This document shows, piece by piece, positions 1 to 2,337 of a DNA stretch of 64,000 nt (the first letter of the stretch is position 1; each line of letters begins with the position of its first letter). Below the pieces are notes generated by a model. The model was not told the DNA's origin and did not search any database. It was given only the letters and a program-made list of their open reading frames with translations. The position numbers and the translations under genes were made by a program. The DNA comes from Elusimicrobium minutum. GTDB lineage: Bacteria > Elusimicrobiota > Elusimicrobia > Elusimicrobiales > UBA9959. The stretch lies in contig DYIF01000004.1 of the NCBI GenBank assembly GCA_020723765.1, positions 74,199 through 138,198 of the forward strand, written 5' to 3'.

Positions 1-330
1 GGGATTCGGGCCTATAAAAACTATATCGTTTTTAGAACAAAGCTTTGAAAACTCGGAATTTTCGGATAGAAAACCGTAACCCGGGTGAACGGCGTCGGCT
101 TTGCTTAAAACAGCGGCGGACAATATTTTATCCATATCCAGATAGCTTAATTTAGCAGGTCCTTCTCCTATGCAATAAGATTCGTCCGCCATTTGAACGT
201 GAAGAGAATTTTTGTCCGCGGTCGAGTAAACCGCTACGGATTTTATCCCCATCTCTCTAAGAGTTCTAATTACTCTTACGGCTATCTCTCCTCTGTTTGC
301 GACAAGAACCTTTTTAAATTCTTTTTTCAC
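1..330 (-). CDS. accC: Biotin carboxylase subunit of acetyl-CoA carboxylase (N-terminal part, cut by window edge)
   Basis: Reading leftward from a GTG at 330, the first 110 codons give [19 protein letters not shown], followed by [14 protein letters not shown] and [14 protein letters not shown], the N-terminal biotin-carboxylase domain signatures. In the family this enzyme carboxylates biotin on the carrier protein AccB using ATP and bicarbonate, the first step of malonyl-CoA synthesis in the cytosol. A strong AGGAGG lies at 335-340, 4 nt before the GTG, and decides this non-ATG start. The start overlaps the stop of the upstream zinc-ribbon gene by 4 nt (GTGA), so the two are translationally coupled. 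The gene continues beyond position 1. Confidence 0.93.
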
Positions 331-1949
331 TTTTCCTCCTTCGAGTTTAACTCTAAAGTTCTATCCCAGAGATTTACTCTGCCGGAGTAATTTTTAACTA
401 CTTCCGGGGTTTTTGAAATCTTTTTTATCTCCGCAAAAACCTCGTATTCGGGACCGATGGCATGTTTACAGGAAAACGAGATATCGTATTTGAATTTAGG
501 ATTTTGAAGTTTTATATTTTTTAAAACGGAGTTAATAAATTCTTCAAATCGCGCATTTTCATATTTATAATTTTTAAAAAATTTCAAAGCTTCTTCGCAC
601 ATAACGCCGTTCATCATCGCTATTCTTTTTTCCGCATCGGTTTTTTCCACACCTTCTCCGCATATCGAAACCGCGCTTGAAAGGTCTTTCAAAGAATTCT
701 CATAATTTTTAATTCTGGCATAGGCGTCGGCCCTCGATAAAAAAACCGAGCATTTGCTTTTAAACGGCGCGTCGACTGCTTGCAATAATTCCCCGAAAAC
801 CTTTACGGCTTCTTCGTTTTTACCCAAAAATTTCAGGCTGTCCGCATAATTAAAACGATACCAGAAGATGTCTTCGTCGGTATAGTATTTTATCGGATAT
901 ATCGAAGAAATTTCAATGGTTCTTTTGCAACTCTCCATGGATTTATCGTAAAGCCTCATAAAATATTCGCTCCAGCAAAGATAACCGGAGGAACGAGGGT
1001 CCAAGGGGTCTATAAGGTAGAGTTTTTGAGACAAAAACAAAGCTTTTGAAAAATCTTTTAAATTAAAAGCCTCGTCTATCTGTTCGAATAGATTCCAGAC
1101 ATAAGGCCTTGTCCATATATCGTGTTCCTTTATAAAATTAAGATAATCGTCTTTCCATTCGTTTCCTTCTTTTATTTTATATTTTACGACGCTTTGATTA
1201 TTATCGAAATAATAAATCTTTAAATCTTTGAAATCCCAGCTTCCGACCCGAGAATAATAATCCTCGCTCGTTTTGACATAATCGGTAAACGATATTATGG
1301 TCTTTGAGTTATTGGATAAATAGGAATAAGCCTTTTCATAATCTCTGTTTTTTAAAGCGGAAAGATATTTGTTTGCGGTAAATAGCAGATTGTATCTTGA
1401 AAGACTTTTCCTTATAAAAAGAAAATAAGATAGCAAAAGAGAAACGACAACCGACGAAACGATTACGATTAAAAATCTTTTGTTTTTAAAACTGGATTTT
1501 TCCTTGCACTCCTTCGGCTCTTCTTTTTGTTCCGATTTTTTTGGAATTTGACCCACATATTCGCTAAGGGCTTTCTTCTCTTTTTCGGTTTTTTTTACGT
1601 CTTCTGATACCGGATTTGAATTAAATTCAACTTTCGGTCTGTTATAATTTTTCTTTTCCGAATCTTCTCGAGACATCGTTTCGGTGATGGGCTCAAACTC
1701 TATTTTTATTTTTTTGTTTTCCGGTTTCGTTTCTTCTTTTTCCTTTTCGATATCTATCTTTTTTTGAGGGGTTAAAGCGAGAAGAGCGTCGCACTTATCG
1801 CATCTTACTTTTTCTACGCCGTTTGGGTGTCCGCAGTTTCCGCATATCTTTACTATTTCTCCGCCGCATTTAATACAAACATCGCTCAATATATTAGGTT
1901 CATATCCGCAGCTTTTACAAACTATTTTGCTGGGTTTTATATCCGACAT
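327..1949 (-). CDS. Double zinc-ribbon, single-span membrane protein with TPR-like C-terminus, between accB and accC
   Basis: 540 residues. The N-terminus has four CxxC knuckles (CKSC, CIKC, CGNC, CDKC, residues about 12-54), a tandem zinc ribbon. A charged, probably disordered Lys/Glu-rich linker follows, then one membrane segment ([20 protein letters not shown], about 158-178). The rest is helical and looks like TPR repeats ([52 protein letters not shown]). The ribbon should be cytoplasmic and the TPR part on the other side of the membrane. It lies 1 nt after accB and overlaps accC by 4 nt, so it is co-expressed with fatty-acid synthesis genes. I do not recognise a named family; a membrane scaffold is a guess. 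Confidence 0.75.
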
Positions 1950-1950
1950 A

Positions 1951-2322
1951 CTATTCCAATATGAAAAGAAGTTGAGCGTACTCTACGACATCTCCTTCGT
2001 TAACGCATATGACTTTTATTTTTCCGTCTATCGGAGAAACCACTTCCGTTTCCTTATTCATAATCTTCACATAACCCAAAACATCTCCTTTTTTCACGGA
2101 GCTTCCCTCTTTAACGGTAACGGATTTCCCTTTTTTGGTAAAATTAAAAACGCCTATCTCTGGAGAAACGACGCTTGTAAGGTTGGAAGATATTTTCGTG
2201 CTTCCCCTATTTTCCCCTTCTTTTACGAGAGATATTTTGTAATTTCCTCTTTTAAATTCAAGTTCCACAAGCTCGGATTCCTTAAACCATTTGTTTATAT
2301 CGTTCATTTCTTGCATTTTCAT
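1951..2322 (-). CDS. accB: Biotin carboxyl carrier protein homologue with the biotin-accepting lysine replaced
   Basis: 123 residues. The C-terminal half (about 50-123) is a clear biotinyl domain: SPEIGVFNF, VKKGDVLGYV, IMNKETEVVSPIDGKI, NEGDVVEYAQLLFIL. In BCCPs the central turn is EAMKM with Lys as biotin acceptor. An ungapped alignment over the 18 residues from Val to the conserved Gly places Asn89 at that Lys, with a Lys one position later (Lys90). The codons read atg aat aag. Either Lys90 is used, or this is a non-biotinylated paralogue like plant BADC proteins. The N-terminal 45 residues resemble the usual BCCP helix and linker. GGAGG sits 4 nt before ATG. It stands just upstream of the zinc-ribbon gene and accC. 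Confidence 0.85.
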   Translation of the reverse strand: MKMQEMNDINKWFKESELVELEFKRGNYKISLVKEGENRGSTKISSNLTSVVSPEIGVFNFTKKGKSVTVKEGSSVKKGDVLGYVKIMNKETEVVSPIDGKIKVICVNEGDVVEYAQLLFILE

Positions 2323-2337
2323 AACACCTCCGAAAAA

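What the first reader, a model, noticed from the sequence alone, without database searches (positions are those of the whole stretch)
1951..2322. AccB homologue lacking the biotin lysine at the normal position
An ungapped alignment of the biotinyl turn puts Asn89 at the acceptor Lys, with Lys at 90 and Glu-Ala replaced by Lys-Ile. The protein sits in the acc operon. It may be a BADC-like non-biotinylated subunit, or a carrier with a shifted acceptor needing an adapted biotin ligase.
Basis: partly seen in the sequence, partly recalled or inferred. Interest (0 to 1): 0.65.

Follow-up and report, generated by a model that had tools for sequence, protein, structure and literature searches.

The report
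Biotin-less carrier twin beside biotin carboxylase
In one class of the bacterial phylum Elusimicrobiota, the biotin-carrier gene next to biotin carboxylase has lost its biotin attachment site but is kept under strong selection, while a normal carrier elsewhere in the genome remains; this looks like a bacterial counterpart of the biotin-less assembly subunits so far described as unique to plant plastid acetyl-CoA carboxylase.

Summary
Window 1951-2322 (-) encodes a 123-aa AccB homologue with Asn89 at the tip of the biotinyl hairpin (VKIMNKE instead of VEAMKV). It is not a lone oddity: the sister species also has Asn. In Elusimicrobiota two AccB lineages coexist with, as a rule, one AccC. AccB1 (beside pnp) keeps EAMK. 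AccB2 (this gene) lies upstream of accC in 81 of 84 stretches checked. In the 76 genomes without accA, AccB2 never has Met-Lys, shows many residue types besides Lys at the acceptor column, and sometimes has no Lys in the turn. In 27 genomes with accA, AccB2 keeps Met-(Lys/Arg/Gln). AccB2 is under purifying selection (dN/dS about 0.08) and has its own N-terminal signature, WxxxTDLxE (75/76).

Best reading: after AccA/AccD were lost and a PCCB/MmdA-type carboxyltransferase took over, the accC-linked AccB stopped carrying biotin and became a non-biotinylated partner of AccC. It works like plant BADC but is not shown to be a BADC. The shifted-acceptor or adapted-ligase alternative is not supported: the genome has one ordinary BirA-type ligase and one canonical BCCP. 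AccC binding and the assembly role are inferred, not shown.

The parts
1951..2322 (-). accB2: 123-aa AccB homologue without the biotin acceptor Lys
   Evidence: orthologues
2221..2316 (-). N-terminal helix (residues 3-15) and two strands (18-24, 29-34): the presumed AccC-binding part, with the signature WxxxTDLxE (here W12-FKE-S16-E17-L18-V-E20)
   Evidence: AlphaFold2 model, pLDDT about 60-72 there; conservation; weak start-to-start alignment with E. coli BCCP
1957..2178 (-). Biotinyl-type beta barrel, residues 49-122
   Evidence: Pfam PF00364; model and Foldseek match to 1bdo and 4hr7
2056..2058 (-). Codon AAT of Asn89 at the place of the biotinyl Lys; Lys90 follows at 2055-2053
2327..2331 (-). 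Shine-Dalgarno-like GGAGG
   Evidence: read from the sequence
327..1949 (-). 540-aa zinc-ribbon/TPR-like protein between accB2 and accC; homologues at the same place in many related genomes; function unknown
1..330 (-). accC, biotin carboxylase, N-terminal 110 aa (continues beyond the window)
   Evidence: whole gene L009:7162-8529; only AccC of the genome

Best explanation
accB2 is the AccB of the accC operon that has given up carrying biotin. In this organism the acyl-CoA carboxylase would consist of one AccC, one biotin-bearing carrier (AccB1, encoded beside pnp) and one PCCB/MmdA-type carboxyltransferase encoded next to a type-I lipid megasynthase. AccB2 is proposed to bind AccC through its retained N-terminal helix and beta-hairpin and to act as a fixed, non-biotinylated subunit that holds AccC (and perhaps AccB1) in the right assembly, as plant BADC proteins do for plastid ACC. 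Shown here: loss of the acceptor motif across the class, a second canonical carrier, a single AccC in 45 of 46 genomes, linkage to accC, purifying selection, a biotinyl-type fold (predicted), coincidence with absence of AccA. Inferred: no biotin on AccB2, binding to AccC, and an assembly rather than inhibitory effect.
For: Canonical AccB1 in the same genome and in 283/295 phylum genomes by search. AccB1 and AccB2 are separate clades with the hairpin columns left out (SH-aLRT 100). Acceptor column of AccB2: K65 S11 R7 G5 A5 N3 Q2 P2 T V C. 0/76 accA-negative genomes have Met-Lys; 27/27 accA-positive ones keep Met before the acceptor. accC downstream on the same strand in 81/84 stretches. One AccC in 45/46 genomes. 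dN/dS median 0.083 for AccB2, 0.104 for AccB1. N-terminal WxxxTDLxE in 75/76 motif-less AccB2, 0/27 accA-positive AccB2, 0/87 AccB1. Shorter stretch between N-terminus and barrel. Biotinyl-type fold.
Against: 42 of the 76 motif-less AccB2 still have a Lys at the tip, without Met. The link between AccA loss and motif loss is phylogenetically close to one event. The N-terminal similarity to E. coli BCCP is weak (7.5 bits) and modelled at moderate confidence. No interaction or biochemistry was available.
Confidence: 0.68

Rival explanations
1. AccB2 is still a biotin carrier, with biotin on the neighbouring Lys90 (or on the Met-less Lys of other genera), served by a relaxed or adapted BirA.
For: Lys90 is kept in both species of this genus; 42/76 motif-less orthologues have Lys at the tip; a BirA-type ligase is present.
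Against: A canonical carrier exists in the same genome. The acceptor column holds many residue types and the hairpin varies in length. G040 and G215 have no Lys in the turn. The ligase is an ordinary single copy. From general knowledge, biotin ligases need the Lys exactly at the tip.
Confidence: 0.1
2. AccB2 is a non-biotinylated inhibitor or sensor of AccC (competing with AccB1 for AccC) rather than an assembly factor.
For: Same sequence evidence as the best explanation; plant BADC was first seen as an inhibitor (quoted in PMC11926652).
Against: Later plant work favours an assembly role (PMC11926652). Sequence cannot decide; near-universal linkage to the only accC fits a structural part at least as well.
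Confidence: 0.15
3. AccB2 is a decaying relic of the old AccABCD enzyme with no function.
For: Loss of the motif coincides with absence of AccA.
Against: dN/dS about 0.08; a near-invariant N-terminal signature that is new to this group; open frames in all orthologues listed.
Confidence: 0.04
4. AccB2 carries lipoate instead of biotin.
For: Some orthologues read ETGK, which resembles the lipoyl ETDK motif.
Against: The genome has one protein of the BPL/LplA/LipB superfamily, the BirA-type ligase; this genus has no Lys at the tip.
Confidence: 0.03

Closest known systems
Plant BADC proteins (biotin attachment domain-containing, BADC1-3 of Arabidopsis)
   Same: BCCP relative without the biotinylation motif, present beside true BCCP and a biotin carboxylase; BADC aids assembly of BC and BCCP (PMC11926652), as proposed here
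   Different: Bacterial; encoded in an operon with accC; its phylogenetic relation to BADC was not tested; works with a PCCB/MmdA-type carboxyltransferase instead of CT-alpha/CT-beta. PMC11926652 calls BADC unique to the plant enzyme
AccB / BCCP of acetyl-CoA carboxylase (E. coli AccB, 1bdo, 4hr7)
   Same: Biotinyl-type barrel (1bdo TMt 0.88), N-terminal helix and hairpin, linkage to accC
   Different: No acceptor Lys and no AMKM motif; below the TIGR00531 cut-off (44.9 against 115.2 bits, though AccB1 at 95.3 is also below); shorter stretch between N-terminus and barrel
BCCP domain of Chloroflexus aurantiacus BC1 (8HZ4)
   Same: N-terminal BCCP beta-hairpins bridge BC dimers into an active tetramer (PMC11077971); AccB2 keeps a predicted hairpin at that place
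   Different: That BCCP is biotinylated (Lys553) and fused to BC
Non-catalytic subunits of actinobacterial acyl-CoA carboxylases (cited as 'glue' in PMC11926652)
   Same: Small non-catalytic subunit that helps the holoenzyme assemble
   Different: No sequence relation was tested here; known to me and from the citation only

Membership tests
BCCP / AccB (biotin carrier of ACC) | Biotinyl-type barrel | tested here: met
   PF00364 50 bits; Foldseek 1bdo, 4hr7
BCCP / AccB (biotin carrier of ACC) | Acceptor Lys in a Met-Lys motif at the hairpin tip | tested here: not met
   Asn89; 0/76 accA-negative orthologues have Met-Lys
BCCP / AccB (biotin carrier of ACC) | TIGR00531 equivalog cut-off | tested here: not met
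   44.9 bits against 115.2; the canonical AccB1 also falls short at 95.3
BCCP / AccB (biotin carrier of ACC) | Biotin attached in vivo | not testable with these tools
   needs streptavidin blot or mass spectrometry
Plant BADC | BCCP homologue lacking the biotinylation motif, coexisting with true BCCP | tested here: met
Plant BADC | Part of the ACC complex, binds BC and BCCP | not testable with these tools
   only indirect: linkage to accC, N-terminal conservation
Plant BADC | Descent from the plant/plastid BADC lineage | not tested
   no BADC sequence was placed in the tree; AccB2 groups with Elusimicrobiota AccB2 that still have the AMK motif, which suggests an independent origin
Lipoyl domain | ETDK acceptor and a lipoate ligase or transferase in the genome | tested here: not met
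   no Lys at the tip; single PF03099 protein, BirA-type

The most novel reading that the evidence does not exclude
In class Elusimicrobia the ancestral efp-accB-accC carrier turned, after the AccA/AccD carboxyltransferase was replaced by a PCCB/MmdA type, into an obligatory biotin-less AccC subunit: a class-wide bacterial BADC analogue that arose independently of plants.
Probability: 0.55. Interest if true: 0.75.

Novelty: new variant of a known kind. Interest (0 to 1): 0.62.

Why it matters
Biotin-less BCCP relatives have been presented as a plant speciality. A bacterial set with intermediate states (AMK, AMR, AMQ, then none) in one phylum shows how a carrier could become a structural subunit, ties the change to a swap of the carboxyltransferase, and offers small proteins that can be reconstituted in E. 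coli to ask what BADC-type subunits do.

Tried and rejected
Sequencing error restoring the motif: rejected, the sister species also has Asn. Shifted acceptor with special ligase: not supported. Lipoylation: rejected for lack of a lipoate ligase or transferase. Pseudogene: disfavoured by dN/dS and conservation. A genome-contig scan with the single protein found nothing; with the alignment it kept 80 loci, nearly all titled Elusimicrobia/Elusimicrobiota, but it rests on one peptide pattern and says little about other phyla. Paper searches for bacterial non-biotinylated BCCP paralogues, for BADC evolution and for Elusimicrobia BCCP gave nothing on this. Distances to accC were inflated by split matches for some loci and were redone.

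Full report
WHAT IS THERE. The minus strand of 1951-2322 encodes a 123-aa protein with a Biotin_lipoyl domain at residues 51-122, a Shine-Dalgarno-like sequence and the hairpin V85-K-I-M-N89-K90-E. Asn89 is at the place of the biotinyl Lys. The gene is followed by a 540-aa zinc-ribbon/TPR-like gene and then accC, and preceded by cdd and mtnP, all on the same strand. The AlphaFold2 model (mean pLDDT 82.5) gives an N-terminal helix and two strands at moderate confidence and a barrel at high confidence, with the turn at residues 88-89. Foldseek finds the E. coli biotinyl domain first (1bdo TMt 0.88; 4hr7 0.90).

THE REST OF THE ENZYME. The genome (G000, 2.1 Mb, 98% complete) has one AccC, the one next to this gene, and one BPL-superfamily protein, a BirA-type ligase after a nadC-like gene. 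It has a second, canonical AccB (157 aa, CLIEAMKVFNEI) directly after rpsO-pnp. Its only carboxyltransferase is of MmdA/PCCB type (561 aa); the AccA model finds only that same frame. That gene follows a 2898-aa KS-AT-ACP-KR-DH megasynthase and a phosphopantetheinyl transferase, and the only FabD-like match of the genome lies in the megasynthase. Elusimicrobium minutum was reported to have a type R pfaA cluster with PPTase (PMC3098273), and a 2011 survey found an ACC-type BC but no CT-alpha or CT-beta in its one Elusimicrobia genome (PMC3199775).

ORTHOLOGUES. The phylum is Elusimicrobiota by the record titles of related loci. With this protein 249 of 295 phylum genomes match at E <= 1e-5 and with AccB1 283 of 295; weak matches to one query can be the other paralogue, so genes were sorted by sequence. 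Sequences were taken for 103 genomes with AccB2 and 87 with AccB1. AccB1 was picked by its EAMK[VI]xN motif, so '87/87 EAMK' is by construction. The check is the tree: with the hairpin columns left out, AccB1 and AccB2 separate on one branch at SH-aLRT 100, and no sequence without EAMK falls among AccB1.

THE ACCEPTOR. In AccB2 the acceptor column holds K65 S11 R7 G5 A5 N3 Q2 P2 T V C. On the tree the Lys/non-Lys state needs at least 15 changes and the Met-Lys/other state 4. The 56 representative motif-less forms make one group (SH-aLRT 99). Met-Lys survives only where AccA is present: 27/27 accA-positive genomes keep Met at -1 (23 MK, 3 MR, 1 MQ; a further genome, G054, has ETMR), and 0/76 accA-negative genomes have Met-Lys (42 have Lys without Met, 34 have no Lys). 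This is a clean split but, phylogenetically, close to a single event.

KEPT FOR SOMETHING. Within genus g4, median dN/dS is 0.083 for AccB2 (91 pairs) and 0.104 for AccB1 (66 pairs). The hairpin tip has 2.36 bits of mean column entropy in motif-less AccB2 against 0.04 in AccB1 (the latter partly by construction), while the N-terminal positions W12, T16, D17, L18 and E20 are nearly invariant (this protein itself has S16 and E17). WxxxTDLxE, allowing S, E, I and Q, is found in 75/76 motif-less AccB2 and in none of 27 accA-positive AccB2 or 87 AccB1. The stretch between this motif and the barrel is shorter by a rough count (median 35 residues against 49 and 54), which fits a fixed subunit better than a swinging carrier. 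accC follows on the same strand in 81 of 84 stretches, 49 within 200 bases and 32 after 0.7-2.2 kb. For the other three, G211 has 1.2 kb and G274 2.8 kb of downstream sequence held, and in G107 accC lies elsewhere on the same contig. AccC is single in 45/46 genomes.

ORIGIN. In accA-positive lineages elongation factor P lies upstream, giving efp-accB2-accC, in 24/27 stretches; in accA-negative ones it does not (0/57). From general knowledge efp-accB-accC is a common bacterial order, so AccB2 is likely the ancestral accB and AccB1 the second copy beside pnp. The simplest history is that both were carriers, AccA/AccD were lost and replaced by a PCCB/MmdA-type enzyme, AccB1 stayed the carrier and AccB2 kept only its partnership with AccC. 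Lys to Arg or Gln changes in some accA-positive lineages suggest that AccB2 was already drifting that way.

HOW IT WORKS (inferred). The N-terminus aligns start to start with that of E. coli BCCP, weakly (7.5 bits). In Chloroflexus the BCCP N-terminal hairpins join BC dimers into an active tetramer (PMC11077971). Plant BADC lacks the AMKL motif and helps BC and BCCP assemble (PMC11926652). I therefore propose an assembly subunit of AccC. An inhibitory role cannot be told apart from sequence. Biotin on Lys90 is unlikely, but only mass spectrometry can exclude it.

LIMITS. Most genomes are probably metagenome-assembled. Hairpin alignment is uncertain where the length varies. Lys is still common at the tip in several genera. 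Nothing was tested outside the phylum beyond one pattern scan, and no plant BADC was placed in the tree.

Noticed in passing
L306:1330-12383 (G000 contig C24): The genome's only carboxyltransferase gene follows a PPTase gene and a 2898-aa KS-AT-ACP-KR-DH megasynthase (type R pfaA-like), which also holds the only FabD-like match found; malonyl-CoA use may run mainly through this megasynthase.
   Followed up: partly
window 327-1949 (-): A 540-aa protein with an N-terminal zinc ribbon, a likely membrane segment and TPR-like repeats lies between accB2 and accC here; homologues lie in or near that place in many accA-negative genomes. Function unknown.
   Followed up: partly
L010:6652-9520 (-): The canonical accB1 sits directly after rpsO-pnp; pnp was found in the held stretch of 76 of 87 AccB1 loci, an unusual home for a biotin carrier.
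   Followed up: partly
L184, L168, L173, L179, L186: In accA-positive lineages AccB2 has Arg (G002, G004, G009, G054) or Gln (G030) in an otherwise intact motif (EAMR, ETMR, EAMQ): further losses of the acceptor.
   Followed up: partly
genomes G059, G157, G174 (family f5): No AccB2 was found by either query although AccB1 is present; G059 has three fused carboxyltransferases and a more distant AccC.
   Followed up: no
genomes G213 and G229: Three matches to AccB2 per genome; the extra copies were not looked at.
   Followed up: no
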